Shown here one piece after another: positions 21,299-53,141 of a stretch of DNA of 64,000 nt. Below the pieces are notes generated by a model that saw only the letters and a program-made list of their open reading frames with translations, searched no databases and was not told the DNA's origin. How positions within the stretch are numbered: position 1 is the first letter of the stretch; each line of letters starts with the position of its first letter. A program made the position numbers and the translations under genes. Source of the DNA: Caulobacter sp. UNC358MFTsu5.1 (GTDB lineage: Bacteria; Pseudomonadota; Alphaproteobacteria; Caulobacterales; Caulobacteraceae); the NCBI RefSeq assembly GCF_000712075.1, contig NZ_JONW01000008.1, positions 1-64,000 on the forward strand. Reading direction: 5' to 3'.

Positions 21299-21312
21299 CG
21301 ACAACGTTGTCA
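21299..21312. promoter_or_regulatory. Operator-like palindrome in the GH3/GH97 divergent region
   Basis: CGACAACGTTGTCA, with a perfect 12-bp palindromic core GACAACGTTGTC at 21300-21311, centred on CG as LacI-family operators are. It matches sites before GH35, the TonB receptor/dehydratase pair and GH5 under TGAYARCGYTRTYA, apart from a C in place of the first T. It lies 28 bases upstream of the GH3 start codon. Confidence 0.65.
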
Positions 21313-21352
21313 GTCGCACGCCGACGATGTCGGGGCAATCCGTACGCCTTGC

Positions 21353-21366
21353 TGGTACCGGTATCT
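21353..21366. promoter_or_regulatory. Second operator-like element in the GH3/GH97 region
   Basis: TGGTACCGGTATCT is an imperfect CG-centred palindrome. A near match, TGTTACCGTTATCA, lies at 42355-42368 upstream of GH35. This suggests a second LacI-type site class shared by the two halves of the polysaccharide locus. Confidence 0.45.
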
Positions 21367-21461
21367 AAAAGCTCGACGGCGATCCATACACGGTCTAATT
21401 TGTGTGACAAATAGAAACGCCCATTAAGCGGCCGATAAGCAACCAGCGGGGAAACGACCAC

Positions 21462-23435
21462 ATGCGGACTCATGCAGCGGGCCTGATGGCCGGTGCGGCC
21501 ATGGCGATCGTCGCCGCCTCTCCCGCCTTCGCCGCCGAACAGCGGCTGACCTCGCCCGACGGCGCGTTGCAGGTCACGGTTTCCGACAGCGACGGCCAGG
21601 CCCGCTACGCCGTGGCCTACAAGGGCCAGCCCCTGCTGGCGCCCTCGCCGCTGGGCCTGGTGCTCAGCGCCGGCGGCTCGCTGAGCCACGGGCTGAAGAT
21701 CGCCGGCGCCGCGCCCTCGAGCGGCGACGCGACCTACGATCTCGTGGCCGGCAAAACCCGGACGGTCCGCGACCGCTACAACCAGCTCGACGTCGACTTC
21801 CAGGAGCCCGAGGGCGGCAAGCGCCGGCTGCGGGTGATCGTGCGGGCCTATGACGACGGCGTCGCGTTCCGCTACGTGCTGCCCCGTCAGCCCGGCCTGG
21901 ACGCGGTGAACATCCGCAACGAGGAGACCCGCTTCGACTTCCCGGCCGACTACCGCTGCTGGGGCCTGAACCTGGGCAAGTTCGGCACCAGCCACGAGGG
22001 CGAGTTCGATCCGGTCCAGGCCTCGAAGCTGCGCGAGCACAATCTCTACGACGCGCCCCTGGTCTGCGAGGGCGCCAACGCCGCCTTCGCCATCGCCGAG
22101 GCCGACCTGAAGGACTATGCCGGCCTCTACCTGACCGGACGCGGCGACGGCGGGCTGGGCGTGCAGGCCAAGCTGTCGCCCCGCCTGGACGATCCGACCG
22201 TGGCCGTGCGCACCCGCATCGGCGCCGACGTGGTCTCGCCCTGGCGCGTCGTGATGGTGGCCCCCAAGGCCGGCCAGCTGATCGAAAGCAACCTGGTCAC
22301 CACCTTGAGCGCGCCGTCGAAGGTGGCCGACACGTCCTGGATCAAGCCGGGCAAGGCGGCCTGGGACTGGTGGAACGGCCCGTCGATCAGCGGCGTGGCC
22401 AAGCCCGGCATGAACGCCGAGACCATCAAGCGCTACATCGACTTCGCGGCCGCCAACGGCCTGGACTACATGCTGATCGACGAGGGCTGGCACGCGGGCG
22501 CCGGCGGCGGCGGGGCGGTCCAGCCGGGCGTCGACGTCACCCGCCCGATCCCCGAACTCGATCTGCCCGGCCTGATCGCCTACGCCAAGGAGCGCAAGGT
22601 CGGCCTGTGGCTGTGGCTGAACTGGAAGGCCCTGGACGCCCAGATGGACGAGGCTGTCCCGCTGTACGAGCAGTGGGGGATCAAGGGGATCAAGGTCGAC
22701 TTCATGGACCGCGACGACCAGGCCATGGTCGACTACTACCACCGCCTGCTGACCAAGGCCGGCCAGCACCATCTGATGGTCGACCTGCACGGCGCCGAGC
22801 ATCCGACGGGCCTTATCCGCACCTATCCGCACTACCTGACCCAGGAAGGCGTCATGGGCGCGGAGTACAACAAGTGGAGCCGGCGGGTGACCGCCGCCCA
22901 CAACGTCACCCTGCCCTACACCCGCATGCTGCTGGGGCCGATGGACTACACGCCCGGCGGTTTCCGCAACGTGGCGCCGGCCGCGTTCGATCCGCGCAAC
23001 ACCCTGCCCTTCGTCCAGACCACGCGCGGCCAGGCCCTGGCCATGTACGTGGTCTATGACAGCCCGTTCGGGATCGTCGCCGACAGCCCCGACACCTACA
23101 AGGACAGCCCCGCGGGCCTGGACTTCGTCGCCGCCGCCCCCACCACCTGGGACGAGACGCGGTTCGTGGCGGGCGAGATCGGCCAGTCGGTCGTGCTGGC
23201 CCGCCGCAAGGGCGCGGACTGGTGGATCGGGGCGATGACCAACGACGCCGGCCGGACCGTGAAGATCCCGCTGGGCTTCCTCGGCGCGGGCGCCTTCACC
23301 GCCGACATCCGCCAGGACGGGGCGGCGCCGACCGACCTCGTCGCCTCGACGCGGACGGTGAAGGCCGGCGACGTCCTGACCCTGAAGCTGGCGCCCAGCG
23401 GCGGCGCGGCCGTCCGTCTGACGCCGGCCCGCTAG
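21462..23435 (+). CDS. GH97 glycoside hydrolase, retaining (alpha-galactosidase-like) clade
   Basis: 657 residues with a signal peptide to about residue 24 (SPAFAA). The N-terminal beta-sandwich, (beta/alpha)8 barrel and C-terminal all-beta domain of GH97 are recognisable. Asp413 in IKVDFMDRDD stands where retaining GH97 enzymes have their nucleophile, and Glu468 (MGAEYNKW) lies 55 residues on. From memory, the Bacteroides alpha-galactosidase BtGH97b uses D415 and E470, the same spacing. This favours retaining alpha-galactosidase over inverting alpha-glucosidase activity. The stop codon overlaps the GH74 start (TAGTG), indicating translational coupling. Confidence 0.9.
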   Translation: MRTHAAGLMAGAAMAIVAASPAFAAEQRLTSPDGALQVTVSDSDGQARYAVAYKGQPLLAPSPLGLVLSAGGSLSHGLKIAGAAPSSGDATYDLVAGKTRTVRDRYNQLDVDFQEPEGGKRRLRVIVRAYDDGVAFRYVLPRQPGLDAVNIRNEETRFDFPADYRCWGLNLGKFGTSHEGEFDPVQASKLREHNLYDAPLVCEGANAAFAIAEADLKDYAGLYLTGRGDGGLGVQAKLSPRLDDPTVAVRTRIGADVVSPWRVVMVAPKAGQLIESNLVTTLSAPSKVADTSWIKPGKAAWDWWNGPSISGVAKPGMNAETIKRYIDFAAANGLDYMLIDEGWHAGAGGGGAVQPGVDVTRPIPELDLPGLIAYAKERKVGLWLWLNWKALDAQMDEAVPLYEQWGIKGIKVDFMDRDDQAMVDYYHRLLTKAGQHHLMVDLHGAEHPTGLIRTYPHYLTQEGVMGAEYNKWSRRVTAAHNVTLPYTRMLLGPMDYTPGGFRNVAPAAFDPRNTLPFVQTTRGQALAMYVVYDSPFGIVADSPDTYKDSPAGLDFVAAAPTTWDETRFVAGEIGQSVVLARRKGADWWIGAMTNDAGRTVKIPLGFLGAGAFTADIRQDGAAPTDLVASTRTVKAGDVLTLKLAPSGGAAVRLTPAR

Positions 23436-25612: not shown

Positions 25613-25620
25613 GGACAGGC

Positions 25621-27261
25621 ATGAGCCTCAATCGCCGCGACCTTCTGAACCTCGGCGCCGGCCTGGCCGCCGCCTCGGCCCAATCCACTCTGGGGGGGCC
25701 TGCTTTCGCCGCTTCGAAGCGGGGCTTCCAGCCCAGCTGGGAGTCCCTGGCCGACGGCTACAAGACCCCCGACTGGTTCCGCGACGCCAAGCTGGGCATC
25801 TGGTCGCACTGGGGTCCGCAATGCGTGCCCGAGTTCGGCGACTGGTACGGCCGCCAGATGTACCAGCAGGGCAACCCGTTCTACCAGCACCACGTCAAGA
25901 CGTACGGGCACCCGACGACGTTCGGCTTCATGGAGTTCATCCCGCGCTGGAAGGCCGACCGTTGGGACCCGGAAGGCCTGATGCGCAAATACAAGGCCGC
26001 TGGCGCCAAGTACTTCATGTCGATGGCCAACCACCACGACAACCTCGACATGTTCGACAGCCGCCACCATGCCTGGAACACCCTGCGCGTGGGTCCGGGG
26101 CGGGACATCGTCGGGACGTGGGAGAAGGTCGCCCGCCAGCACGGCCTGCGCTTCGGCGTCTCCAACCACTCGGCCCACGCCTGGCACTGGTGGCAGACCG
26201 CCTACGGCTACGACGCCGAAGGCCCGCTGAAGGGCCGGCGCTACGACGCCTTCCAGCTGACCAAGGCCGACGGCAAGGGCAAGTGGTGGCAGGGCCTGGA
26301 CCCGCAGGACCTCTATACCGGCCGCAACATGGTGATCCCCGACGGGATCGACAGCATCGCCGCCGCCAACGCCTGGCACGACAAGCACGACGGCGAGTGG
26401 CTGGAGACCCCACCGCCGAACAACCCGGCCTTCACGGCGAACTGGCTGGCGCGCCAGAACGACCTGGTCGACCGCTACAAGCCCGACATGGTCTATTTCG
26501 ACAACTACGGCCTGCCGCTGGGCCAGGCGGGGCTGTCGGCCACGGCCCACTACTACAACCGGGCCCGCGCCTGGCGCGGCGCGTCGGACGTGGTCGTCAC
26601 CGGCAAGAAGCTCAGCCCCCTGCAGCGCCGGGGCATCGTCGAGGATGTCGAGCGCGGCTTTTCCGACCGCCTGCGGCCCGAGCCCTGGCAGACCGACACC
26701 TGCATCGGCAACTGGCACTACGACCGCGCCCTCTACGACCGCGACGGCTACAAGAGCGCCCAGGACGTGATCCAGCGGCTGATCGACGTGGTCAGCAAGA
26801 ACGGCTGCCTGATGCTCTCCATCCCCCAGCGCGGCGACGGCACGATCGACGACAAGGAGGAGAAGGTGCTGGAGGGCATGGCCGGCTGGATCGCCGTCAA
26901 CGGTCCGGCCATCTACGGCTCGCGCCCCTGGCGGATCTTCGGCGAGGGCCCGACCAAGCTGGTCGAGGGCATGCAGAACGAAGGCGCGGCCAAGCCGTTC
27001 GAGGCGGCCGACATCCGGTTCGTCACCAAGGGCGGGGATCTGTATGCGCTGCCGATGGCCTGGCCGTCAGGCGAGCTGGTGATCGAGAGCCTGGCGACGA
27101 GCGGGCAGACGAGTGGGGGCGAGGTTCGGCGGGTGGAGCTGCTGGGCTCGCCCGAGCCGCTGGCGTTCAAGCGGGACGGCAAGGGGTTGCGGGTTGAGAT
27201 ACCGAGCGCGCGGCCGGCTTTCACGCCGGTTCTGAGAATCTCCGGACCTGGGTTGGTCTGA
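25621..27261 (+). CDS. GH29 alpha-L-fucosidase
   Basis: 546 residues with a twin-arginine-type leader (NRRDLLNLGAGLAAASA), so probably exported folded. The GH29 barrel features are WFRDAKLGIWSHWGPQ, MANHHDN, KPDMVYFDNYGLPL with probable nucleophile Asp294, and a C-terminal beta-sandwich. It starts 9 bases after the GH74 stop and ends the GH97-GH74-GH29 operon. Expected substrate: alpha-1,2-fucose on xyloglucan galactosyl side chains. In other xyloglucan loci that job is often done by GH95, so GH29 here is an alternative. Repeat A2 follows directly. Confidence 0.93.
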   Translation: MSLNRRDLLNLGAGLAAASAQSTLGGPAFAASKRGFQPSWESLADGYKTPDWFRDAKLGIWSHWGPQCVPEFGDWYGRQMYQQGNPFYQHHVKTYGHPTTFGFMEFIPRWKADRWDPEGLMRKYKAAGAKYFMSMANHHDNLDMFDSRHHAWNTLRVGPGRDIVGTWEKVARQHGLRFGVSNHSAHAWHWWQTAYGYDAEGPLKGRRYDAFQLTKADGKGKWWQGLDPQDLYTGRNMVIPDGIDSIAAANAWHDKHDGEWLETPPPNNPAFTANWLARQNDLVDRYKPDMVYFDNYGLPLGQAGLSATAHYYNRARAWRGASDVVVTGKKLSPLQRRGIVEDVERGFSDRLRPEPWQTDTCIGNWHYDRALYDRDGYKSAQDVIQRLIDVVSKNGCLMLSIPQRGDGTIDDKEEKVLEGMAGWIAVNGPAIYGSRPWRIFGEGPTKLVEGMQNEGAAKPFEAADIRFVTKGGDLYALPMAWPSGELVIESLATSGQTSGGEVRRVELLGSPEPLAFKRDGKGLRVEIPSARPAFTPVLRISGPGLV

Positions 27262-27389
27262 ACACTTGCCCCCTACGGACCGCTGCGCGGTCGTCTTCCC
27301 CCGGAGGGGGAAGAGCCTCGCGCCTTAGGCTCCGCCCCCTACGGGGGCGGACAGACCGCGTAGCGGTCAGGTGGGGGCAAGCGGGTGAG
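27262..27389. repeat. Intergenic repeat family A, copy 2
   Basis: Same multi-stem structure as the copy at 5865-6003, with a shorter central spacer. It lies between the GH29 and SDR genes, both plus-strand, and begins at the base after the GH29 stop codon. Confidence 0.9.
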
Positions 27390-28212: not shown

Positions 28213-28215
28213 ACT

Positions 28216-40457: not shown

Positions 40458-40488
40458 CGGTTTCTTCCCTTTGATCTCGTTTTTATCT

Positions 40489-40615
40489 CCGCTCATCCCG
40501 GCGAATGCCGGGACCCAGATGGAATGGCTTCGAGACTGGAGCCACGGGCTCTGCGCCCTTCCAGTCAGCCGTCCCGCCACGGGATCTGGGTCCCGGCATT
40601 CGCCGGGATGAGCGG
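40489..40615. repeat. Intergenic repeat family B, copy 3
   Basis: Nearly identical outer arms to the copies at 18665 and 28216 (CCGCTCATCCCGGCGAATGC). It separates GH35 from GH31 on the same strand, the same arrangement as GH3-B1-CE20. Confidence 0.93.
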
Positions 40616-42345: not shown

Positions 42346-42368
42346 TGACAGCGCTGTTACCGTTATCA
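42346..42368 (-). promoter_or_regulatory. Two overlapping operator-like palindromes upstream of GH35
   Basis: TGACAGCGCTGTTA (42346-42359) fits the locus-wide TGAYARCGYTRTYA pattern. TGTTACCGTTATCA (42355-42368) matches the second element at 21353-21366. They share 5 bases, so binding of two regulators would compete, or a single regulator may bind a composite site. Confidence 0.6.
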
Positions 42369-42420: not shown

Positions 42421-43929
42421 CTAGATCGGATCGGCCTTGCAGTGCCGGGCGATGAACTCGTCGTGCGTCAGCAGCCGGTCGGCGATGTGGTTCATCTTGT
42501 CCCGCACATTGGCCAGGGCCCGCTGGACGTCGGCCAGCGGCGGCACGTCGGCCAGGCGGTCGTAGTCGCGGGGCTCGACGCCCTGCCCCAGGAACACCGA
42601 CACCCAGCTGGGCTCGGCGAACAGCTGGTCGTCGAAGCGGGCGACCTTGCCGCGCTCGCGGAACAGCTCGATCTTGTGGGTCAGGCTGTCGGGCAGCGCC
42701 ATCCGCCGGCAGTAGCGCCACAGCTCGGAATCGTCGCGCTCGGTGGCGCGGTAGTGCAGGACGATGAAGTCGCGGATCTGCTCGTATTCGAGCTTCGACA
42801 GGCGATTGTACTCCTCGACCGCCGCCGGGTCGTGGTTCCGGGTGGGCAGCAGCGAGATCAGGCGCATCACGCCCGTCTGGATCAGGTGGATGCTGGTCGA
42901 TTCCAACGGCTCCATGAAGCCGCTGGCCAGGCCCAGGGCCACGACGTTCTTGTTCCAGGCCTGCTTGCGCCGGCCGGTGACGAAGCGCAGCAGCCGGGGC
43001 TCGGCGCGCGGCGCGCCGTCGAGGTTGGCCATCAGGGTGGCGGCGGCCTCGTCGTCACTGATGAACGGGCTGGAATAGACGTAGCCGTTGCCCGTGCGGT
43101 GCTGCAGCGGGATGCGCCACTGCCAGCCGGCGGTCCGGGCGGTCGAGCGCGTATAGGGCGTCAGCGGCGCGACGCTCTCGCAGGGCACGGCCAGGGCGCG
43201 GTCGCAGGGCAGCCAGTGCGTCCAGTCCTCGTAGCCGGACTTCAGCGTCTGCTCGATCAACAGCCCGCGGAAGCCCGAGCAGTCGATGAAGAAGTCGCCC
43301 TCGATCCGCTTGCCGCCCTCCAGCTCGACCGCCTCGATGAAGCCGTCGGACTGGCGCTGCTTGACCTCGACGATCTTGCCTTCGGTGCGCCGGACGCCGC
43401 GCTTCTCGGCGTAGTCGCGCAGGAAGCGGGCGTAGAGGCCGGCGTCGAAATGGTAGGCGTAGGCCAGCGGCGGCACGCCGGGCGGCAGCTCGCTGGGCGC
43501 GATGACGAACTTGCCCTTGCGCGCCGCGACCGCCGACATGGCGTAGTCGCAGATGTCGCTGGTGTCGCCGTGACGGCGCAGCCGCCCCCAGTAGTGATGG
43601 AACCCCACGCCCTCGATCGCCATGCCGATGGGGCCGAACGGGTGGATGTAGCTGTGCCCCAGCCGCCGCCAGTCGCGGAACTCGATGCCCAGCTTGAAGG
43701 TCGCCTGGGTCTTCTTGACGAAGTCGATCTCGTCGATGCCCAGCAGGCTGTTGAGGAACTGGATCGGCGGGATGGTGGCCTCGCCGACGCCGACCGTGCC
43801 GATCTCGTCGGACTCCACCAGCTCGATCTCGCCCACCCGGCCCTTCAGGGCGTGGGCCAGGGCGGCGGCCGCCATCCAGCCGGCCGTGCCTCCCCCGACG
43901 ATGACGAACTTGAGCGGCTGCTCGGTCAT
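42421..43929 (-). CDS. Flavin-dependent tryptophan halogenase family protein
   Basis: 502 residues. The N-terminal FAD motif is [16 protein letters not shown]. The family motif WQWRIP ([20 protein letters not shown]) is intact. The catalytic Lys79 (ATFKLGIEF) has the same number as in PrnA/RebH, and Glu343 ([11 protein letters not shown]) corresponds to the second catalytic acid. All residues needed for FADH2-dependent halogenation through a Lys-bound hypohalous acid are therefore present. It lies between the TonB receptor and GH35, with no peptide- or indole-biosynthesis genes nearby. Such receptor-linked halogenases (for example BrvH of Brevundimonas) have unknown natural substrates. No flavin reductase is adjacent. 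Confidence 0.9.
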
Positions 43930-44065: not shown

Positions 44066-46993
44066 TTAGAAGGTGCCGCGCAGGACGATCGAGTAGCGAC
44101 GATCGGCGACGACCCAGTTGTGCTTGGTCAGGCCTTCCTCGGGACGGCCGGGATAGCTGACCAGGATCCGGGTCTCGGAGTTCGTCAGGTTGGCCGCTTG
44201 GAAGCCGATCTTCAGCGCGTCGTTGACGGTGTAGAAGACCGAGCCGTCCAGCTGGCCGTAGTCGTCGTACCAGGCCGGGATGTTGATGTTCGCGGCCGTG
44301 GTCGTCAGCAGGTAGCGCTCACGCCAGTTGTAGGCCAAGCGGGCCGAAACCTTGCCCAGGTCGTACAGGCCGGCGACGTTGTAGCTGTTGGGCGACAGGC
44401 CCTCGAGCGGCATCTCGTCGTCGTGCGACGAGATGTTGCCGGTCTGGTTGGTGTCGTACGGGTTGGACGCCGCGTTGCGCGTGCCCTTGCTGTCGACGTG
44501 GGTGTAGTTGGCCTGCACGCCCAGGCCGCGCAGGGCGCCCGGCAGGAAGTCGAAGTACTGCTGGTAGGCGACTTCGAAGCCTTTGATGGTGCCGTGGCCG
44601 GCGTTGTACGGCTGGATCACCTGCACCGGACGGGTCACCCCGTTGTTGGTGAAGTTGATGACGGTCGAGCCGTTGGTGATGAAGTTGTAGATGTCCTTGT
44701 AGAACAGCGTCGCCGTCAGGCTGCCGGTCGAGTTGAAATACCACTCGTACGACAGATCGAACTGGGTCGAGCGCGTGGGCTTCAGGTCCGGGTTACCGGC
44801 GTTGGCGGTGTACTGGTAGACGCAGTTGGCCTGCGAACCGCCCGGGATGAAGCTCGAGCAAGTTCCGCCGGTGATGAACCCGTTGGTGGGCGCGATCGTG
44901 TAGTTCGGTTGCAGCTGCTGGAAGTCCGGACGGACGATGGCCTTGGCCGCCGCGAAGCGCACGAACATGTCCGGCGTGATCTTCAGGCGCACGTTCAGGC
45001 TGGGCAGGACGTTCACATAGTCCCGACCGCCCTTGTACGGGCTCTTGCCGCCGTTCGAGAACGCCTGGTCGGCGGCCGGAACGCTGGTGCTGCTGTTCGG
45101 CGTGAAGACCTGCAGGCCCTGGCTGGCGCTTTCGGTCTTGACGACGCGGACGCCGAAGTTGCCGTCGATCTCGCGATCGTCGCCCCACAGCGAGACGTCA
45201 TGGCCGAACCGCAGCAGGCCGAAGGCCGCCAGGGTCTCTTCCTTCTGGTGGTTGGTGCTGCCCTTGCCGCCGCACGAGCTCTGGTCCTCGAAGTCGCCGT
45301 TGAAGGGGCACCAGCTTCCGCCGTTCGCCTGGGCGATCCGGTACAGCAGCTTCGACGTGTCGCCGTAGTTGTTCACGAAGGCCGCGCTCGGCATGACGAA
45401 GGTCGCCGGCAGGTGGGCCTTGCCGCGGAAGTAGTTGTCGAACGGATACAGGCCGTAATAGCCCTGATAGCCGTCCAGCTGGTTGATCGACGGAGCCGAC
45501 CAGCTGGGGGCCACCGTGTCCCAGCGATACGAGGTTTCGCGGGTGGTGGCCTGACGGAAGGTGTGACGTACGCCGAAGCGGAACGACTTCAGCCAGCCGC
45601 CGTCGTCGAAGCGGTAGTCGCCGTCGAAGCGCTCGGCCCATTCGGCCGCTTCGTTGCGGTCGTGGTGGTCCATCGCCGCGACCAGGTAGTAGCTGGCCGG
45701 GTTGGACGTGAAGGCCGCGTCGTTGTTCATGGTGATCACCGGCAGGCTGCCGGTGAGGTCCAGGCTGGCCGGGGCGGCGTTGCCGTTCAGCGAGTTGAAC
45801 GCGGTGTTATCGACGGTCTTGGTCTTGGCGTAGACGTACTGGATGTCGCCCGAGAACGTCCACTTGTCGTTCGGCGTGTACTTCACGTTCAGGGCGTAGT
45901 CGGAGGTCACCGAGCTGCGGTCGGCGTAGCGGGTGTCGATCGTCGATGAGCCGAGGCTGGTGTTGTCCGTCTGGCTCTGGGCCAGTGTGCCCTTGATGAA
46001 ATGGCCGTTCGAATCGTAGGTGAAGTCCGTGCCGGCGGCGGGCCAGTTGGTCGAGCCGACGTTGAAGCCGACCGCGTGCTCGGTCGAGGCCTGCGAGGCC
46101 GACGAGCGCAGGAACTGCAGGCTGGCGTCCCACTGGTCGTTCGGGCGCCATTGCAGGGCGGCCGCGATGCCCTTGCGCTCGCGCTCGTAGTCCAGGGTGC
46201 GGTAGCCGAAGCCGCCGGGGACGTAGACCGTCTTGCCGGGCTGCAGGTCGGTCCGGGCGAAGAACGGGTCGACCGAGATGGTGTCGGTGCGGCTGGACAG
46301 CTTGGAGTCCGACAGGTCGATCAGGAAGCCGACCTCGCCGACGTTGGTGTCCCAACGGTTGCTGTAGAGCACCGAGCCGCTGGGCTGCCAGTTCTTGGAC
46401 AGGTCGCCCCAGCTGCTGTCGAGCGAATAGGCCAGGATGCGCTTGCCGCTGTCGAACGGCAGGCGGGTGCGCAGATTGACGGTGCCGCCGACGCCGCCTT
46501 CGATGATGTCGGCCGAGGGGTTCTTGTAGACGTCGACGCCGGACATCAGTTCGGGCGGCACGTCCTCGAAGCTCAGGGTGCGACCGGCCTTGGCCGAGAA
46601 GCTGTCGCGGCCGTTCAGTTCGCCGCGAACCCAGCTCAGGCCGCGAACCTGCACGCCGCTGCCTTCGACCGAGATGCGGTCGGCGTCGCGACCGTCGGCG
46701 GTGCGGCCGATGGTGACGCCCGAAACGCGCTGCAGGGCTTCGGTGACCGAACGGTCAGGAAGGGCGCCGATGTCGGTGGCGGTGATCGAGTCCACCAGCT
46801 GCTCGGCGTTCTGCTTCAGCTTCTGGGCCGATTGCAGGGCGGCGCGCTGGCCGGTGACGACGACTTCCTCGACCGTGTCGGCGGCCGGGGCGGGAGCCGC
46901 CTGGGCGAAGGCGACCGCGGGCAGGGCGCCGCAAAGGACAAGCGCCGAGGCGCCCATGAACATGACGTTGCGACGAGAATTACGAGGCGGCAT
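44066..46993 (-). CDS. TonB-dependent receptor, TonB-Xanth-Caul type, probable oligosaccharide importer
   Basis: 975 residues. A signal peptide ends near residue 30 (AVAFAQA), followed by a TonB box-like DTVEEVVVTGQR. The plug (about 50-190) includes the Xanthomonas-Caulobacter signature RVSGVTIGR and IEGGVGGTVNLRTRLPFD. A long barrel ends in RYSIVLRGTF with terminal Phe. This class is typical of plant-glycan loci. GGAAGGAAACCGG precedes the ATG. It is divergent from the sugar-acid dehydratase over a perfect 22-bp palindrome. Probable substrate: xyloglucan oligosaccharides, inferred from the neighbours. Confidence 0.94.
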   Translation of the reverse strand: MPPRNSRRNVMFMGASALVLCGALPAVAFAQAAPAPAADTVEEVVVTGQRAALQSAQKLKQNAEQLVDSITATDIGALPDRSVTEALQRVSGVTIGRTADGRDADRISVEGSGVQVRGLSWVRGELNGRDSFSAKAGRTLSFEDVPPELMSGVDVYKNPSADIIEGGVGGTVNLRTRLPFDSGKRILAYSLDSSWGDLSKNWQPSGSVLYSNRWDTNVGEVGFLIDLSDSKLSSRTDTISVDPFFARTDLQPGKTVYVPGGFGYRTLDYERERKGIAAALQWRPNDQWDASLQFLRSSASQASTEHAVGFNVGSTNWPAAGTDFTYDSNGHFIKGTLAQSQTDNTSLGSSTIDTRYADRSSVTSDYALNVKYTPNDKWTFSGDIQYVYAKTKTVDNTAFNSLNGNAAPASLDLTGSLPVITMNNDAAFTSNPASYYLVAAMDHHDRNEAAEWAERFDGDYRFDDGGWLKSFRFGVRHTFRQATTRETSYRWDTVAPSWSAPSINQLDGYQGYYGLYPFDNYFRGKAHLPATFVMPSAAFVNNYGDTSKLLYRIAQANGGSWCPFNGDFEDQSSCGGKGSTNHQKEETLAAFGLLRFGHDVSLWGDDREIDGNFGVRVVKTESASQGLQVFTPNSSTSVPAADQAFSNGGKSPYKGGRDYVNVLPSLNVRLKITPDMFVRFAAAKAIVRPDFQQLQPNYTIAPTNGFITGGTCSSFIPGGSQANCVYQYTANAGNPDLKPTRSTQFDLSYEWYFNSTGSLTATLFYKDIYNFITNGSTVINFTNNGVTRPVQVIQPYNAGHGTIKGFEVAYQQYFDFLPGALRGLGVQANYTHVDSKGTRNAASNPYDTNQTGNISSHDDEMPLEGLSPNSYNVAGLYDLGKVSARLAYNWRERYLLTTTAANINIPAWYDDYGQLDGSVFYTVNDALKIGFQAANLTNSETRILVSYPGRPEEGLTKHNWVVADRRYSIVLRGTF

Positions 46994-47119
46994 TCCGGTT
47001 TCCTTCCCCCAGATGAGATCCGTCCCAGCGCTCTAAGGGCGCCGGTGACGTGCGCCGCACGGGTAGCGGTCACACGATCTGAGGGGAGCTTTAGTCATAT
47101 AATTGAGACTTACAATACC

Positions 47120-47141
47120 AAATTGATAGCGCTATCAATTT
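47120..47141. promoter_or_regulatory. Perfect 22-bp palindromic operator in the receptor/dehydratase gap
   Basis: The core TTGATAGCGCTATCAA lies inside a 22-base perfect palindrome, about 127 bases from the receptor start and about 140 from the dehydratase start. CG-centred symmetry is typical of LacI-family operators, and the core fits TGAYARCGYTRTYA. An AT-rich stretch with TATACT (47218-47223) nearer the dehydratase may be its -10 region. Confidence 0.75.
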
Positions 47142-47278
47142 GAGCCGAAGGGCGCGACTTTTGCGCCACGCTGGCCTCAAACCCCTGTGAATCCACGACG
47201 TTTGCAACCATCATTATTATACTATAAATGAAGCTCCATCGGACGCGAGTAGCGCTGTCCGTGGCGTCAGGGAAGAAC

Positions 47279-49015
47279 ATGGGTCAGGGAAACGGGGGCG
47301 GCAGGTTCCGCAGCGGTCACAGCTACGGGAAGCTGGATCGTGACGGCTTTATCCATCGCAGCTGGATGAAGAGCCAGGGCCTGCCGGACGACGTGTTCGA
47401 CGGGCGGCCGGTGATCGGCATCTGCAACACGTGGTCGGAAATCACCCCCTGCAACGCGGGTCTGCGCGACATCGCCGAGCACGTGAAGCGCGGTGTCTGG
47501 GAAGCCGGCGGCCTGCCGCTGGAATTCCCCGCCATGTCGCTGGGCGAGACCCAGATGCGCCCCACCGCCATGCTGTTCCGCAACCTGCTGGCCATGGACG
47601 TCGAGGAGTCGATCCGCGGCAACCCGATCGACGGCGTCGTGCTGCTGGGCGGCTGCGACAAGACCACCCCGGGCCAGATGATGGGCGCGGCCAGCGTCGA
47701 CCTGCCCACCATCGTCGTCTCGACCGGCCCGATGCTGAACGGCAAGTTCCGCGGCAAGGACATCGGCTCGGGCACCGACGTCTGGAAGTTCTCCGAGGCC
47801 GTGCGGGCCGGCGAGATGACCCTGCCGGAGTTCATGTCGGCCGAGAGCGGCATGAGCCGCTCGCCCGGCACCTGCATGACCATGGGCACCGCCTCGACCA
47901 TGGCCGCCATCGTCGAGGCCATGGGCATGAGCCTGCCCTACAACGCCTCGATCCCGGCCGTGGACGCCCGCCGCGCGGCGATGGCCCACCACACCGGCCG
48001 GACCATCGTGCGCATGGTGCACGACGGCCTGACCATGTCGCAGGTGGTCACCCGCGCCGCCTTCGAGAACGCCCTGCGCGTGCACGCCGCGATCGGCGGC
48101 TCGACCAACGCCGTGGTCCACCTGCTGGCCCTGGCCGGCCGCCTGGGCGTCGAGCTGGCGCTGGAGGACTTCGACAACCTGTCGCGCGACGTGCCCCTGC
48201 TGGTCGACCTGCAGCCGTCGGGCCGCTTCCTGATGGAAGACCTGCACTACGCCGGCGGCCTGCCGGCGGTGATGAAGCAGATGGCGCCGTTCCTGAACCC
48301 CGAGGCCCTGACGGTCTCCGGTACGCGGATCGGCGAGCAGTACGAGAAGGCCGAGGTGTTCAACGCCGAGGTCATCCGCGGCCTGGAAGCCCCGGTGAAG
48401 CCCGACAGCGGCATCTGGGTGCTGCGCGGCAACCTCGCGCCCGGCGGGGCGGTGATCAAGCCCAGCGCCGCCAGCCCCGAGCTCTTGAGCCACAAGGGCA
48501 AGGCCGTGGTGTTCGAGACCATTGAGGACTTCAAGGCCCGCATCGACTCCCCCGAGCTGGAGGTCGACGAGACCTCGATCCTGGTGCTCAAGGGCTGTGG
48601 TCCCAAGGGCTATCCGGGCATGCCGGAAGTGGGCAACATGCCCCTGCCGACCAAGCTGCTGGAGAAGGGCGTCAAGGACATGGTCCGTATCAGCGACGCG
48701 CGGATGAGCGGCACGGCCTTCGGCACGGTGATCCTGCACGTCTCGCCCGAGTCCGACGCCGGCGGCCCGCTGGCCGTGGTCCGCAGCGGCGACGAGATCG
48801 AGCTGAACGGCCCCGCCCGCGCGCTGAACCTGCTGATCCCGGACGAGGAGCTGGCGGCGCGTCTGGCCGAGTGGAAGGCCAATCCGCCCGCGCCCAAGGC
48901 GACGCGCGGCTACGCCAAGCTCTACATCGACCACGTGCTGGGCGCCGACAAGGGCGCGGACCTGGACTTCCTGGTCGGGTCGAGCGGCTCGGTCGTCACG
49001 CGAGAATCGCACTGA
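47279..49015 (+). CDS. IlvD/Edd family sugar-acid dehydratase (galactonate/arabonate type)
   Basis: 578 residues. Three cysteines that would hold the Fe-S cluster are Cys58 (SEITPCN), Cys126 (LLGGCDKT) and Cys199 (SPGTCMT). Their 68- and 73-residue spacing equals that recalled for the [2Fe-2S] L-arabinonate dehydratase of Rhizobium (C59/C127/C200), which also takes D-galactonate and D-fuconate. With dgoK and dgoA directly downstream, D-galactonate to 2-keto-3-deoxy-galactonate is the likely reaction. The ATG at 47279 is chosen (AGGGAAG just upstream); the frame is open to 47228. The stop overlaps the dgoK start (TGATG). Confidence 0.9.
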   Translation: MGQGNGGGRFRSGHSYGKLDRDGFIHRSWMKSQGLPDDVFDGRPVIGICNTWSEITPCNAGLRDIAEHVKRGVWEAGGLPLEFPAMSLGETQMRPTAMLFRNLLAMDVEESIRGNPIDGVVLLGGCDKTTPGQMMGAASVDLPTIVVSTGPMLNGKFRGKDIGSGTDVWKFSEAVRAGEMTLPEFMSAESGMSRSPGTCMTMGTASTMAAIVEAMGMSLPYNASIPAVDARRAAMAHHTGRTIVRMVHDGLTMSQVVTRAAFENALRVHAAIGGSTNAVVHLLALAGRLGVELALEDFDNLSRDVPLLVDLQPSGRFLMEDLHYAGGLPAVMKQMAPFLNPEALTVSGTRIGEQYEKAEVFNAEVIRGLEAPVKPDSGIWVLRGNLAPGGAVIKPSAASPELLSHKGKAVVFETIEDFKARIDSPELEVDETSILVLKGCGPKGYPGMPEVGNMPLPTKLLEKGVKDMVRISDARMSGTAFGTVILHVSPESDAGGPLAVVRSGDEIELNGPARALNLLIPDEELAARLAEWKANPPAPKATRGYAKLYIDHVLGADKGADLDFLVGSSGSVVTRESH

Positions 49016-49953
49016 TGAATCCGATGGACAGCTCGGTCACGATCTTCGGCGACTGGGGCACCTCGCGTCTGCGGCTCTATCTGCGCCAGGGCAAGAGCGT
49101 GCTGGACCGCCGCGACGGACCGGGCATCGGGGCGCTGAACGGCGCCTCGCCGCGCGAGGCGTTCCTGGACCTGGTCGGCGACTGGCGCGAGGCCGGTCCC
49201 TCCCTGGCCCTGCTGTGCGGCATGGTCGGCTCGCGCAACGGCTGGCAGGAGGCGGCCTACGCCCCCTGCCCGGCCGGCGCCGCCGACGTCCGCGAGCGGC
49301 TGCTGCACCTCGACGCCGACGGCTTGCCCGTGGCCATCGTGCCGGGCCTGTCGTGCCGCAACGCCCTGGGCGGTCCGGACGTGATGCGCGGCGAGGAGAC
49401 CCAGATCCTGGGCGCCCTCGAACTGGACCCCGCCCTCAAGCATGGCCCCCATCTGTTGGCCCTGCCCGGCACCCACACCAAGTGGGTCGCGGTCGAGGAC
49501 GGCCGCATCGCCGGTTTCGTCACCGCGCCCGTCGGCGAGCTCTACGCCCTGCTGCGCGAGCACTCGATCCTGGCCAAGGCCGCGCCGGGTGATGAGCCGG
49601 AATCCGCCGAGGGCTTCGCCCTGGGCGTGACCCGCATCCGCGAGCAGGGCGCCGCGCGCCTGCCGCACCTGATCTTCGAGACCCGCAGCCGCCAGCTGAT
49701 CGACGGCCTGCCCAAGGCCGACGCCATGGGCTTCCTGTCGGGCCTGCTGCTGGCCGCCGACGTGGCGGCCACGGTCGACTGGTTCGGCGCCCTAGGCCAG
49801 GTCTCGCTGATCGGCGCGCCCGCCCTGAGCAGCCTTTACGCCCAGGCCATCGCCGCCTTCGGCGGGACCAGCGTGGCGGTCGACGGCGACTCCGCCGTCC
49901 TGGCCGGTCTTTCGGTCCTGTCGCCCACCCGTGGAGTACACGTCGTTGCCTAG
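49015..49953 (+). CDS. dgoK: 2-dehydro-3-deoxygalactonokinase
   Basis: 312 residues, DgoK family with an ASKHA kinase fold. The start has FGDWGTSRLRLYL (phosphate 1 motif), followed by LLCGMVGSRNGW, PGLSC, RGEETQILGAL, LLALPGTHTKWV and GFVTAPVGELYALL. It phosphorylates KDGal at O6 to give KDPGal. The ATG at 49015 overlaps the dehydratase stop; ATG 49024 is a possible alternative. Second gene of the galactonate operon. Confidence 0.94.
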   Translation: MNPMDSSVTIFGDWGTSRLRLYLRQGKSVLDRRDGPGIGALNGASPREAFLDLVGDWREAGPSLALLCGMVGSRNGWQEAAYAPCPAGAADVRERLLHLDADGLPVAIVPGLSCRNALGGPDVMRGEETQILGALELDPALKHGPHLLALPGTHTKWVAVEDGRIAGFVTAPVGELYALLREHSILAKAAPGDEPESAEGFALGVTRIREQGAARLPHLIFETRSRQLIDGLPKADAMGFLSGLLLAADVAATVDWFGALGQVSLIGAPALSSLYAQAIAAFGGTSVAVDGDSAVLAGLSVLSPTRGVHVVA

Positions 49954-50560
49954 CACGCCCCCCATCGTCGCCATCCTGCGCGGCGTGAAGCCCGACGAGG
50001 TCCTCGACATCGCCGCCGCCCTGGTCGAGGCCGGGATCGAGGCCATCGAGGTGCCGATGAACTCGCCCGAGCCGCTGGTTAGCATCGGCAAGCTGTGCGC
50101 CGCGTTCGGCGACAAGGCCCTGTGCGGGGCCGGCACGGTGCTGTCGCCCGAGGTCGTCGACCAGGTGGCCGGCGTCGGCGGCAAGCTGATCGTCACGCCC
50201 AACATCGACGTCGAGGTCATCCGCCACGCCGTGGGGCTGGGCCTGACCGTCATGCCCGGCTTCGCCACGCCCAGCGAGGCCTTCGCCGCCGTCAAGGCCG
50301 GCGCCCGCTCGCTGAAGCTGTTCCCAGCCGGCACCTTCGGCCCGGGCCACATCAAGGCCGTGCGCGACGTGCTGCCCAAGGACGTCAGCGTCTACGCCGT
50401 GGGCGGCGTCGGCGCGGCCAATCTGGAGCCCTGGATCAAGGCCGGCGTCGCCGGCATCGGCGTGGGCGGCGAGCTCTATCGTCCGGGCTACACGGCCGAA
50501 GAGGTCGGGGCCCGCGCCAAGGCCCTGGTGGCCGCCTGGACCGAACAGACCACCCAGTAA
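49946..50560 (+). CDS. dgoA: 2-dehydro-3-deoxy-6-phosphogalactonate aldolase
   Basis: About 204 residues, class I KDPG/KDPGal aldolase family. It has VAILRGVKPDEV, GIEAIEVPMNSPEPL, GAGTVLSPE, Schiff-base Lys in SLKLFPAGTFGP and GGVGAANLEPWI. It splits KDPGal to pyruvate and glyceraldehyde 3-phosphate. TTG at 49946 is favoured because GTGGAG stands 9 bases upstream. GTG at 49931 is an in-frame alternative that would add 5 residues but overlaps that ribosome site. Either start lies inside the end of dgoK, so the two are coupled. Confidence 0.92.
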   Translation: MPSTPPIVAILRGVKPDEVLDIAAALVEAGIEAIEVPMNSPEPLVSIGKLCAAFGDKALCGAGTVLSPEVVDQVAGVGGKLIVTPNIDVEVIRHAVGLGLTVMPGFATPSEAFAAVKAGARSLKLFPAGTFGPGHIKAVRDVLPKDVSVYAVGGVGAANLEPWIKAGVAGIGVGGELYRPGYTAEEVGARAKALVAAWTEQTTQ

Positions 50561-50607
50561 CGAGCGTCCGCGTCGGAACAAGAACACGGCCCAAAGGGGG
50601 GACCCCA

Positions 50608-52164
50608 GTGAGAACCATCGATTTCGTCATCCTGGCGATCTACGCCGTCGCCATCTTCGGCCTGGCCCAGTGGGTCTCCCGCGACAAGGGCGGCCACAAG
50701 AAGGACTCCACCGACTACTTCCTGGCCGGCAAGGCCCTGCCCTGGTGGGCGATCGGCGCCTCGCTGATCGCCGCCAACATCTCGGCCGAGCAGATCATCG
50801 GCATGAGCGGCTCGGGCTACGCCCTGGGCCTGGCCATCGCCTCCTACGAATGGATGGCGGCCCTGACCCTGCTGATCGTCGGGAAGTTCTTCCTGCCGAT
50901 CTTCCTGAAGAACAACATCAGCACCATGCCGCAGTTCCTGGAGCAGCGGTACGGACCCAGCGTGCGCAACCTGATGGCCTGGTTCTGGCTGGGCCTCTAC
51001 ATCTTCGTGAACCTGACCTCGATCCTGTGGCTGGGGTCGATCGCCGTGCACACGGTGACCGGCATCGACCAGATGCAGGCCCTGATCATCATCGGCGTCT
51101 TCGCCCTGGCCTATCAGCTGTGGGGCGGCCTGAAGGCCGTGGCCCTGACCGACATCGTCCAGGTGGCCCTGCTGGTCATGGGCGGCCTGATCATCGTCTA
51201 CCTGTCGCTGACCAAGATCGGCGGCGAAGGCGGCGCGGTGGCCGGCTTCACCCATCTGACCACCCAGTTCCCCGACCACTTCAAGATGATCCTCGACAAG
51301 TCGAGCCCGCACTACAAGGAACTGCCCGGCCTGTCGGTGCTGATCGGCGGCCTGTGGGTGATGAACGTCAGCTATTGGGGCTTCAACCAGTACATCATCC
51401 AGCGCGCGCTCGGCGCCAAGGACATCGCGGAGGCCCAGAAGGGCATCGCCTTCGCCGCCTATCTGAAGCTGCTGATGCCGGTGATCGTGGTCGTTCCGGG
51501 CCTGGCCGCCCTGGTCCTGGCGCCGGGTCTCGCCAAGCCCGACCAAGCCTATCCGGAGATGATGAAGCTGCTGCCGCCGGGCCTGCTGGGCCTGGTGTTC
51601 TCGGCCCTGGTCGCGGCGATCGTCGCGTCGCTGGCCGCCAAGATCAACTCGATCGCCACCATCTTCACCCTGGACATCTACGCCAAGGCCAAGAAGGACG
51701 CGTCGGAACAGCACCTGGTGCTGGTGGGCCGCATCACCGCCGTGGTCGCCGTGCTCGTCGGCATCGTGTCGGCGGGACCCCTGCTGGGCGGCGCCGACCA
51801 GGTGTTCCAGCGGATCCAAGAGTACACGGGCTTCTTCACCCCGGGCATCGTGGTGATCTTCATGCTGGGCCTGTTCTGGAAGCGCGCCACCACCGCCAGC
51901 GCCCTGGTGGCCACGGCCGGCTCGGTGATCCTGTCGCTGGCCCTGAAGTTCGGCATGCCCGACATGCCCTTCATGAACCGCGTCGGTCTGGTCTTCCTCC
52001 TGGCCCTGGCCGCCGCCGTCCTCGTCTCGCTGGTCGCGCCCCAGAAGAAGGAGGTCAACGTCGTGTCGCTGGAGGGGGTCAGCTACAAGACCACCACCGG
52101 CTTCAACATCGCCGGACTGGGCGTGATCGTGATCCTGATCGCGCTTTACGCCACCTGGTGGTGA
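50608..52164 (+). CDS. Sodium:solute symporter (SSS family), probable sugar transporter
   Basis: 518 residues with about 13-14 membrane helices. SSS hallmarks are DYFLAGKALPWWAIGASLIAA, SAEQIIGMSGSGYALG, YQLWGGLKAVALTD and ALVAAIVASLAAKINSIAT. The nearest known types are sodium/galactose or sodium/glucose cotransporters (vSGLT-like). The GTG start at 50608 follows a run of G (AAAGGGGGG). It lies 47 bases after dgoA. It probably brings a monosaccharide released in the periplasm (galactose or similar) across the inner membrane. A strong terminator follows. Confidence 0.93.
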   Translation: MRTIDFVILAIYAVAIFGLAQWVSRDKGGHKKDSTDYFLAGKALPWWAIGASLIAANISAEQIIGMSGSGYALGLAIASYEWMAALTLLIVGKFFLPIFLKNNISTMPQFLEQRYGPSVRNLMAWFWLGLYIFVNLTSILWLGSIAVHTVTGIDQMQALIIIGVFALAYQLWGGLKAVALTDIVQVALLVMGGLIIVYLSLTKIGGEGGAVAGFTHLTTQFPDHFKMILDKSSPHYKELPGLSVLIGGLWVMNVSYWGFNQYIIQRALGAKDIAEAQKGIAFAAYLKLLMPVIVVVPGLAALVLAPGLAKPDQAYPEMMKLLPPGLLGLVFSALVAAIVASLAAKINSIATIFTLDIYAKAKKDASEQHLVLVGRITAVVAVLVGIVSAGPLLGGADQVFQRIQEYTGFFTPGIVVIFMLGLFWKRATTASALVATAGSVILSLALKFGMPDMPFMNRVGLVFLLALAAAVLVSLVAPQKKEVNVVSLEGVSYKTTTGFNIAGLGVIVILIALYATWW

Positions 52165-52210
52165 CGTCGCCGACGGCGTGTCCACCGGTGTCCACGCATG
52201 TCTGAAGCGC

Positions 52211-52242
52211 AAAGCCCCGTCACGCGAGCGTGGCGGGGCTTT
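52211..52242 (+). terminator. Terminator after the galactonate operon
   Basis: AAAGCCCCGTCACG pairs with CGTGGCGGGGCTTT around CGAG, followed by TTCGTCTTT. It closes the dehydratase-dgoK-dgoA-symporter transcript. Confidence 0.85.
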
Positions 52243-52288
52243 CGTCTTTGACATGATTGTTCCGGGCGTGAACGAAGCACGCTACACA

Positions 52289-52299
52289 AGGTCAGACCT
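52289..52299. promoter_or_regulatory. GntR/FadR-type operator upstream of the GntR gene
   Basis: AGGTCAGACCT is a perfect odd-centred palindrome matching the GGTCnGACC core of FadR-subfamily GntR operators such as those of LldR. It lies 48 bases before the GntR start codon, suggesting autoregulation. Confidence 0.6.
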
Positions 52300-52347
52300 A
52301 TTCAGACGACGACCGATTTCAAGAAGCGTTTTGGGGGCGACAACTTG

Positions 52348-53079
52348 GTGATCCGTACGCAGCCGGGCCTCAGTCTGACCTATGGACTCGTCGAGTCCTT
52401 GGGCCAGGCCATCGTCACCGGCGAATACGCCACGATCGGCTTCCCCACCGAAGGCGAACTGTCCAAGCAGTTCGGCGCCAGCCGCACCGTGACCCGCGAG
52501 GCGGTCAAGATGCTGACGGCCAAGGGCCTGCTCAGCGCCCGCCCCCGCCACGGCACCGTGGTCGAGCCCGAGACCGAGTGGAACCTGCTGGACCCCGACG
52601 TCCTGCGCTGGATGCTGGAGCGCAAGTTCAGCCTGCGCCTGCTGGCCGAGTTCACCGAGATGCGTCTGGGCATCGAGCCCGCCGCCGCCGCCCTGGCCGC
52701 CCGCAACGCCGACGAGACCGGGCTGGAAGGCATCCGCAAGGCGCTGAACCGCATGAAGGCCGCCGCCGGCGGCGAGGACGACCCGCTGTCGGCCGACATC
52801 GCCTTCCACGTGGCCATCCTCAACGCCACCAAGAACCCGTTCTATCGCGACCTGCACGAGCTGGTGAACACCGCCCTGCGCATCTCGATCCGCTTCACCA
52901 ACCGCATCAAGGGCCGCACCGCCTCGATCCCGTCGCACGAGGACGTGGCCGACGCCATCATGGCCCGCGACGCCGTGGCGGCCCAGAAGGCCATGCAGGT
53001 GATCATCGTCGACGTGCTGGAACTGATCCGCGCCGCCTCGCCCGACACAGAGTCGGTGGAAGCCCGCCGCGACGCCTGA
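52348..53079 (+). CDS. FadR-subfamily GntR transcriptional regulator
   Basis: About 243 residues. The GntR winged helix (about 10-75: TYGLVESLGQAIVTGEY ... GELSKQFGASRTVTREAVKML) is followed by an FCD domain whose metal/ligand residues include Asp and His in ADIAFHVAIL and HEDVADAI. FadR-type regulators usually respond to sugar acids or carboxylates. With the galactonate operon just upstream, a DgoR-like role sensing galactonate is plausible. The start is GTG 52348 (TTG 52345 is possible). It may also reach GH5 and the aldo/keto reductase downstream. Confidence 0.9.
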   Translation: MIRTQPGLSLTYGLVESLGQAIVTGEYATIGFPTEGELSKQFGASRTVTREAVKMLTAKGLLSARPRHGTVVEPETEWNLLDPDVLRWMLERKFSLRLLAEFTEMRLGIEPAAAALAARNADETGLEGIRKALNRMKAAAGGEDDPLSADIAFHVAILNATKNPFYRDLHELVNTALRISIRFTNRIKGRTASIPSHEDVADAIMARDAVAAQKAMQVIIVDVLELIRAASPDTESVEARRDA

Positions 53080-53127
53080 CATCGAAGGCCGTTCGGGCGT
53101 TGCGCGCCGGCGTTTTCCGGGCGATGT

Positions 53128-53141
53128 TGACAGCGTTGTCA
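53128..53141 (+). promoter_or_regulatory. Operator-like palindrome upstream of GH5
   Basis: TGACAGCGTTGTCA, 32 bases before the GH5 start codon. It fits the TGAYARCGYTRTYA pattern shared with GH3/GH97, GH35 and the receptor/dehydratase gap. Its position near the expected promoter suggests repression. Confidence 0.65.

What the first reader, a model, noticed from the sequence alone, without database searches (positions are those of the whole stretch)
21299..53141. One 14-bp CG-centred palindrome marks four promoters of the glycan genes
CGACAACGTTGTCA (21299), TGACAGCGCTGTTA (42346), TTGATAGCGCTATCAA (core at 47123) and TGACAGCGTTGTCA (53128) all fit TGAYARCGYTRTYA, apart from the first base of the 21299 site. 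They stand before GH3/GH97, GH35, the receptor/dehydratase pair and GH5. The form is LacI-like, but no LacI-family gene lies in the window, so the regulator would act in trans and unite both halves.
Basis: seen in the sequence. Interest (0 to 1): 0.7.

Follow-up and report, generated by a model that had tools for sequence, protein, structure and literature searches.

The report
Two sugar-repressor codes in xyloglucan genes
The four look-alike palindromes are not one switch: they fall into two known kinds of repressor binding site, one apparently read by the xylose repressor and one by a glucose/beta-glucoside repressor, placed in front of genes for eating the plant polysaccharide xyloglucan.

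Summary
The four palindromes are present and their merged pattern is enriched genome-wide (33 forward hits vs 4 for a reversed-pattern control), but they are not one motif. Footprints in relatives, and matrices built from sites outside the window, split them into two LacI-type operator classes. Class G (TGACARCGYTGTCA, GluR/BglR-like): 21299 and 53128. The 47124 core is identical in 28 of 30 receptor loci. Within the genus it occurs in 34 of 45 genomes with a close XylR orthologue and 0 of 28 without. It also stands before GH43, GH39 and GH10 genes. The likely reader is XylR (C8:237148), so action in trans is right for that class. Both window halves encode xyloglucan enzymes (GH74, GH29, GH3; GH31, GH35, TonB receptor), joined to a galactonate operon, so xylose would signal for genes that burn galactose. 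At the GH97 promoter one operator position is class X in 10 of 14 orthologues and class G in 4. A known kind of system; binding is untested.

The parts
47124..47137 (.). Class X (XylR-type) operator TGATAGCGCTATCA between the divergent TonB receptor gene (160 bp) and the galactonate operon (141 bp)
   Evidence: Identical in 28 of 30 receptor loci, own included; 20 of 20 regions fetched from among those; TGGTAGCGCTATCA or TGGTAGCGCTAACA in L245-L248, three of them named Brevundimonas
42355..42368 (.). Class X operator TGTTACCGTTATCA upstream of GH35
   Evidence: Conserved 3 of 3 closest relatives; a class X site with up to 1 mismatch upstream of GH35 in 19 of 19 GH35-bearing regions
21353..21366 (.). 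Class X-like operator TGGTACCGGTATCT upstream of the GH97-GH74-GH29 gene run
   Evidence: Aligned position is class X (up to 1 mismatch) in 10 of 14 GH97 loci of at least 66% identity, own included, and class G in the other 4
21299..21312 (.). Class G (GluR/BglR-type) operator CGACAACGTTGTCA, 27 bp upstream of the called GH3 start
   Evidence: Kept with R/Y changes in the two closest GH97 loci (L212, L213), not found at this position in the other 11 of 14; class G matrix rank 2 in the window
53128..53141 (.). Class G operator TGACAGCGTTGTCA, 32 bp upstream of GH5
   Evidence: Present (up to 1 mismatch) in 8 of 8 GH5-bearing regions and before AKR in 2 of 4 AKR-only regions
42346..42359 (.).
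   Evidence: Broken in 3 of 3 close relatives; class G matrix rank 3 counts against dismissing it fully
44066..46963 (-). TonB-dependent receptor
   Evidence: PF00593, PF07715
40630..42300 (-). GH35 beta-galactosidase of the Bgl35A/GalD type
   Evidence: PDB 3u7v 772 bits, 7kmn 688, 5jaw and 4d1i (Bgl35A) 660 and 659
37620..40496 (-). GH31 alpha-xylosidase of the Xyl31A type
   Evidence: PDB 2xvg (Xyl31A) 1187 bits, 7kmp 1184 bits
42421..43929 (-). Tryptophan-halogenase-family gene between GH35 and the receptor
   Evidence: PF04820 676 bits
47279..49015 (+). IlvD/Edd-family sugar-acid dehydratase, likely galactonate dehydratase
   Evidence: Pfam, NCBIfam (L-arabinonate dehydratase model 834.5 bits, under its cut-off of 882), PDB; galactonate inferred from the next two genes
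49015..49953 (+). 2-keto-3-deoxygalactonokinase (DgoK)
   Evidence: PF05035, scanned in the longer frame 48871-49953
49931..50560 (+). 2-dehydro-3-deoxy-6-phosphogalactonate aldolase
   Evidence: NF006600 291 bits, cut-off 207
50608..52164 (+). Sodium:solute symporter
   Evidence: TIGR00813 337 bits, cut-off 184
52348..53079 (+). GntR/FCD regulator inside the operon
   Evidence: PF00392, PF07729
53174..54187 (+). GH5 endoglucanase-like enzyme
   Evidence: PDB 3amc 231 bits
54305..55363 (+). Aldo/keto reductase (L-glyceraldehyde-3-phosphate reductase subfamily)
   Evidence: NF007388 510 bits, cut-off 448
18800..21271 (-). GH3 exo-beta-glucanase/beta-glucosidase
   Evidence: PDB 3usz exo-1,3/1,4-beta-glucanase 751 bits
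16692..18647 (-). SASA-family carbohydrate esterase behind GH3
   Evidence: PF03629 58 bits
21486..23435 (+). GH97 enzyme, closest to alpha-galactosidases
   Evidence: PDB 3a24 378 bits, 5e1q 375 bits
23435..25612 (+). GH74-type endo-xyloglucanase behind GH97
   Evidence: PDB 6p2m 549 bits, 2cn2 (beta-1,4-xyloglucan hydrolase) 543 bits, over nearly the full length
25621..27261 (+). Alpha-L-fucosidase (PF01120, GH29-type) behind the xyloglucanase
   Evidence: 290 bits

Best explanation
The sites are operators of two LacI-family repressors acting in trans. XylR (gene at contig C8:237148-238206, head of the xylose operon) binds the class X sites: 47124 between the TonB receptor and the galactonate operon, 42355 at GH35 and probably 21353 before GH97-GH74-GH29. 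A GluR/BglR-type repressor (GluR at about C11:135231-136259, or one of its paralogues) binds the class G sites at GH5 and GH3. Inferred working: the xyloglucanase cuts the polymer; oligosaccharides enter through the receptor; GH31 and GH35 release xylose and galactose; xylose lifts XylR from the receptor, GH35, the xyloglucanase run and the divergent galactonate operon, while glucose or beta-glucosides lift the second repressor from the backbone enzymes GH5 and GH3. Shown by computation: the site classes, their conservation, gene families and co-occurrence. Inferred: protein-DNA binding, effectors, repression.
For: TGATAGCGCTATCA is identical in 28 of 30 receptor loci, flank columns averaging 63% identity. 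Of 20 fetched regions around the exact 14-mer, 3 are at galactonate or GH31 genes; of the other 17, 8 stand before relatives (62-69%) of an own GH43 gene (GH43 by Pfam in own L266 and in the three copies scanned), 6 before GH39 genes (6 of 6 by Pfam), 1 before GH10, 1 in another family between an FGGY kinase with a xylose-isomerase-like gene and a LacI gene with the same PMT helix, and 1 before a gene without Pfam match. XylR sits beside D-xylose 1-dehydrogenase (NF053674, 443 bits, cut-off 400), and the xylX promoter carries an exact class X site in 17 of 17 relatives' regions with xylX in view. Genus co-occurrence: 34 of 45 with a close XylR (at least 82% identity, one a partial hit), 0 of 28 without (Fisher p 1.5e-11, ignoring shared ancestry). 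In L245-L248 the receptor operator is TGGTAGCGCTATCA or TGGTAGCGCTAACA, merging with the xylX variants. Class G sites occur at zwf, the LacI gene behind glk, pyk, ppdK, a sucC-like and a gluconolactonase-like gene, agreeing with the GluR regulon predicted in PMC4052901. Matrices from non-window sites separate the classes by 10 to 18 units at the five sites other than 42346. Both halves encode xyloglucan enzymes.
Against: No binding or expression data. The degenerate pattern TGNTANCGNTANCA with up to 1 mismatch is not enriched genome-wide (52 forward vs 107 for the reversed control). 11 of 45 genus genomes with XylR lack the exact 14-mer, and outside the genus G087 has the 14-mer (before GH10) without a XylR match at E 1e-80. 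Two of the 30 receptor loci have AGACAGCGCTGTCC, nearer class G. Hybrid sites (TGATAGCGTTGTCA) occur upstream of GH35 in 10 of 19 regions, and one aligned GH97 position is class X in 10 and class G in 4 of 14, so the classes may not be exclusive. 47124 is also 4th for the class G matrix. Part of both training sets was found with the same patterns. xylX itself matched no Pfam or NCBIfam model and is named by position. Six LacI genes of this genome have KT/RT helices, so the class G regulator is not unique.
Confidence: 0.72

Rival explanations
1. One LacI-type regulator reads all four sites.
For: The merged pattern is enriched; hybrid sites TGATAGCGTTGTCA exist; one GH97 position carries either class in different species.
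Against: Matrices separate the classes by 10 to 18 units at the five sites other than 42346; class X sits at XylR/xyl genes and class G at the GluR-type cluster; 42346 is unconserved.
Confidence: 0.1
2. Another MT-helix LacI, C10:11852-12931 (RMT), rather than XylR, reads TGATAGCGCTATCA.
For: In L155 its orthologue (75%) lies next to a GH39 gene with the exact site upstream.
Against: Close orthologues (at least 74% identity) occur in 15 of 34 site-bearing genus genomes and in 7 of 39 without the site (Fisher p 0.02). More distant relatives (58-63%) were not counted.
Confidence: 0.1
3. The GntR/FCD protein of the operon (52348-53079) reads the 47124 palindrome.
For: It is present in 17 of 17 fetched loci that reach that far.
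Against: Of 20 regions around the exact 14-mer, only the 3 at galactonate/GH31 genes have a called relative of it; 15 have none, and 2 (L157, L158) could not be judged well by the gene caller. CG-centred even palindromes are the typical LacI form (PMC4052901, passage seen).
Confidence: 0.04
4. The palindromes are chance matches.
For: 42346 is probably one.
Against: Enrichment and conservation.
Confidence: 0.02

Closest known systems
XylR regulon of Caulobacter (LacI-type xylose repressor; primary papers recalled, not held)
   Same: LacI gene at the xyl operon with xylX-type operators; PMC1790865 (passages seen) mentions a 20-bp palindrome shared by C. crescentus xylose-regulon genes and Xanthomonas TBDR genes
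   Different: Here the operator also stands before a xyloglucan receptor, GH35, a GH97-GH74-GH29 run and a galactonate operon
GluR / BglR1-3 LacI regulons of Caulobacterales (PMC4052901, passages seen)
   Same: Sites at zwf, pyk, ppdK, a sucC-like gene, a gluconolactonase-like gene and the LacI gene itself in this genome
   Different: GH5 and GH3 of this window would be added targets; which paralogue acts is open; the motif letters were not in the passages seen
Xyloglucan utilisation loci of Cellvibrio (PMC4285296) and Xanthomonas (PMC8245568), passages seen
   Same: GH31, GH35, a fucosidase and a TonB receptor (both), plus GH74 and an esterase (Xanthomonas); GH31 and GH35 hits include those characterised enzymes
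   Different: Here the set is split into two runs about 10 kb apart, the fucosidase is of PF01120 and no GH95 was found among the genes scanned, a tryptophan-halogenase-like gene and a galactonate operon are attached, and LacI operators are assigned

Membership tests
XylR operator (class X) | Same operator class at the xyl operon headed by XylR | tested here: met
   Exact class X site before xylX in 17 of 17 relatives' regions with xylX in view and in the own genome; the letters differ from 47124 at positions 3 and 12
XylR operator (class X) | Present only where XylR is present | tested here: met
   Within the genus 0 of 28 genomes without a close XylR orthologue have the 14-mer. Exception outside the genus: G087 has it without a match at E 1e-80
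XylR operator (class X) | Enrichment of the degenerate class pattern genome-wide | tested here: not met
   52 vs 107 control at up to 1 mismatch. The pattern is loose; of the 10 exact places 8 are at hemicellulose, pectin or xylose genes
XylR operator (class X) | Binding by XylR, relieved by xylose | not testable with these tools
   No wet data
GluR/BglR operator (class G) | Sites at zwf-pgl-edd-glk, gluR, pyk, ppdK, suc, gnl | tested here: met
   zwf exact; the LacI gene, pyk, ppdK, the sucC-like and the gluconolactonase-like gene with 1 mismatch to the scanned pattern; three of these lack the CG centre
GluR/BglR operator (class G) | Assignment to one paralogue | tested here: inconclusive
   Six KT/RT-helix LacI genes, several with similar sites nearby
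Xyloglucan utilisation locus | GH31 alpha-xylosidase, GH35, TonB receptor clustered, with an endo-xyloglucanase | tested here: met
   the GH74-type gene is about 10 kb away from the GH31 gene, in the other half of the window
Xyloglucan utilisation locus | Growth on xyloglucan oligosaccharides needs the locus | not testable with these tools
   No wet data

The most novel reading that the evidence does not exclude
Caulobacter uses one side-chain sugar (xylose, through XylR) as the signal to take up xyloglucan and to burn another of its sugars (galactose), while the backbone enzymes answer to a glucose-type repressor, and individual promoters switch allegiance between the two repressors by rewriting the same operator in place (GH97 position: 10 XylR-type and 4 GluR-type of 14 loci).
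Probability: 0.4. Interest if true: 0.55.

Novelty: new member of a known kind. Interest (0 to 1): 0.42.

Why it matters
It places a galactose-burning pathway under a xylose repressor, a testable case of one released sugar announcing a whole polysaccharide. The GH97 promoter offers a natural series of operators whose class appears to change at a fixed position. A named C. vibrioides genome has the receptor with the same site (L238), so the test can be run in a model organism.

Tried and rejected
Rejected: one motif for all four sites; 42346 as the GH35 operator; an FNR/FixK-like reading of TTGATAGCGCTATCAA (recalled box), because the spacer is N6 and the outer T is not conserved; the RMT LacI as reader; the GntR gene as reader.

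Led nowhere or misled at first: one search read minus-strand loci unturned, mended. The loose pattern TGNTANCGNTANCA is not enriched at 1 mismatch. Exact class X sites at C5:841542 and C10:171005 lie by a glyoxalase-like gene and a small EF-hand gene, no glycan link seen. The gene caller failed on L157 and mostly on L158, of another composition; ORF listing was used instead. No structure prediction or fold search was run.
Full report
Check of the observation. All four strings are at the stated places. TGAYARCGYTRTYA is over-represented: 13 strand-matches with up to 2 mismatches in the window against a shuffled mean of 2.16, 0 of 100 shuffles reaching it, and in the own genome (5.4 Mb, 13 contigs; window = C8:1-64000) 33 forward matches with up to 1 mismatch against 4 for the reversed pattern. 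Of the 35 positions listed, 4 are inside a called gene and 31 are not (one of these abuts a gene start and one overlaps a gene end by 3 bases). So the sites are more than chance, but the pattern is a merge.

Several regulators. The genome has 13 LacI-HTH matches, none in the window. Positions lie close upstream of four of them and about 3.5 kb from a fifth. Class G positions mark zwf (with pgl, edd and glk downstream), the LacI gene behind glk, pyk, ppdK, a sucC-like gene, PEP carboxykinase and a gluconolactonase-like gene (families by Pfam). PMC4052901 (passages seen) predicts for GluR (CC2053) the set zwf-pgl-edd-glk, pykA, gnl-gfo, ppdK and sucABCD, with gluR directly after the zwf operon, and three BglR paralogues for beta-glucoside operons. 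The LacI gene at C11:135231-136259 is therefore taken as GluR by synteny; the letters of the published motif were not seen.

The 47124 site. Of the 30 receptor loci supplied (best matches, own included; further matches came without loci), 28 carry TGATAGCGCTATCA upstream of the receptor start and two have AGACAGCGCTGTCC. Anchored on the site, flanking columns average 63% identity and 5 of 100 are invariant (28 distinct rows; the core is invariant by selection). All 20 longer regions, fetched from among these loci, keep it between receptor and galactonate genes, and none of the 20 shows a called LacI gene (control for the LacI profile). In the named-genome scan 14 of 14 loci L231-L244 (many the same genomes as above) have it; L245-L248 have TGGTAGCGCTATCA or TGGTAGCGCTAACA; L252 has TGATATCGCTACCA and TGGCAGCGCTGTCA farther upstream; L249 (only 94 bases upstream), L250 and L253-L260 have none; L251 was not scanned. 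In 120 genomes searched the exact 14-mer occurs in 36. Of 20 further places fetched, 8 stand before GH43 relatives, 6 before GH39 genes, 3 at galactonate or GH31 genes, 1 before GH10, 1 before a gene without Pfam match, and 1 in another family between an FGGY kinase with a xylose-isomerase-like gene and a LacI gene with the helix PMTVSRV.

XylR. C8:237148-238206 encodes a LacI protein with the same PMT helix, followed by xylX (named by position), D-xylose 1-dehydrogenase (above its curated cut-off), a 291-residue gene without NCBIfam match taken as the lactonase by position, and an IlvD dehydratase. Of 20 regions fetched around matches in relatives, 17 hold XylR with xylX and all 17 have an exact class X site before xylX (TGTTAGCGCTAACA, TGTTAGCGCTACCA or TGGTAGCGCTAACA); two (L202, L204) hold a 50-51% paralogue; one (L210) has XylR but no xylX in view and no site. 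Within the genus (73 genomes) the 14-mer occurs in 34 of 45 genomes with a close XylR orthologue (at least 82% identity, one a partial hit) and 0 of 28 without; some of the 28 are incomplete assemblies. Fisher p is 1.5e-11, not corrected for ancestry; for the RMT paralogue it is 0.02. Outside the genus two genomes have the 14-mer: G099, with a XylR match (3.3e-93) about 1 kb away, and G087, with none at 1e-80. Of the 10 exact class X places in the own genome, window 42355 and 47124, xylX, a sugar transporter with GH43 behind it, another GH43, a second GH35, a deacetylase/esterase cluster and a pectinase/LacI promoter make eight; two have no glycan link.

GH35 promoter. Aligned with the three closest relatives, the conserved piece is TGTTACCG(T/C)TATCA (42355-42368); TGACAGCGCTGTTA at 42346 is broken in all three. 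All 19 GH35-bearing regions have a class X site (up to 1 mismatch) upstream, in L095 only a distant one; 10 have a distant hybrid TGATAGCGTTGTCA.

GH5 promoter. 53128 is kept as TGACARCGTTGTCA, or with one changed base, in 8 of 8 GH5-bearing regions; where GH5 is missing a class G site stands before the aldo/keto reductase in 2 of 4.

GH3/GH97 promoter. Of 20 GH97 loci, the 14 with at least 66% identity were aligned; the 6 at 46-51% show neither class in the 420 bases scanned and were left out of the alignment. At the 21353 position 10 of 14 are class X with up to 1 mismatch; 4 (L221-L224) carry (C/G/A)GACAACGTTGTCA there. The 21299 site exists in 3 of 14 (own and the two closest), with R/Y changes that keep the palindrome.

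Matrices. With six non-window sites per class, class X scores rank 47124, 42355 and 21353 as 1, 2 and 4 of all window positions, and class G scores rank 53128, 21299 and 42346 as 1, 2 and 3; 47124 is 4th for class G. Some training sites had been found with the same patterns, which favours separation.

What the window encodes. GH31 matches Cellvibrio Xyl31A (2xvg) and 7kmp at about 1185 bits over nearly its full length; GH35 matches 3u7v, 7kmn and Bgl35A. In the other half, behind GH97 and downstream of 21353, lie a GH74-type endo-xyloglucanase (6p2m, 2cn2) and an alpha-L-fucosidase; behind GH3 lies a SASA-family esterase. PMC4285296 and PMC8245568 (passages seen) describe xyloglucan loci with such enzymes and TonB receptors; PMC4285296 states that the Cellvibrio locus appears to lack its own regulator, and PMC8245568 names CC0788 of Caulobacter as a GH35 relative. 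The operon divergent from the receptor encodes a sugar-acid dehydratase, 2-keto-3-deoxygalactonokinase and 2-dehydro-3-deoxy-6-phosphogalactonate aldolase, a galactonate route. PMC9007349 (passages seen) reports only mild lactose phenotypes for CCNA_00830, a putative beta-galactosidase of C. crescentus; that this is the GH35 gene here was not tested.

Mechanism. XylR and GluR/BglR are taken as repressors that leave DNA on binding their sugar, from general knowledge of the LacI family. The 47124 palindrome is 160 and 141 bp from the two called starts; transcription starts are unknown, so the geometry of repression, or action from upstream, is not settled.

Literature. In the titles, abstract starts and passages that I saw from the searches, none joins XylR to a Caulobacter xyloglucan or galactonate locus. 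Three papers hold the words xyloglucan, Caulobacter and XylR; passages were seen of two, not of PMC10380989. Two primary papers tried by id are not held, so prior description cannot be excluded.

The organism is taken as a Caulobacter species because close relatives carry that name (for example L237, Caulobacter sp. AP07, whose contig length equals that of G021:C173).

Noticed in passing
window 47217-47227: Perfect TTATA-C-TATAA palindrome upstream of the galactonate operon; its TATAA half is kept in all 14 aligned loci. Could be the -10 region or the operator of the GntR/FCD protein.
   Followed up: no
window 4128-4141: TTTTAGCGGTACCA ranks third for the class X matrix; it lies between another TonB-type receptor (472-3693, minus strand) and the called gene at 4299.
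   Followed up: no
L051:5840 and 10633-10658 (own C5:1.11 Mb): A second cluster of TonB receptor, tryptophan-halogenase-family gene and GH3 with class G sites, one pair overlapping in tandem 12 bp apart.
   Followed up: partly
L221-L224 versus L211-L220, aligned GH97 promoter position: The same operator position is class X in ten loci and class G in four, suggesting a change of regulator in place.
   Followed up: partly
L097-L100, L102, L105-L108, L111, upstream of GH35: Hybrid palindrome TGATAGCGTTGTCA, one half of each class.
   Followed up: no
window 42421-43929; L049:12400-13941, L051:5887-7410, L056:9882-11420: Tryptophan-halogenase-family genes (PF04820) sit beside carbohydrate TonB receptors here and in three other loci of the genome; their role is unclear.
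   Followed up: no
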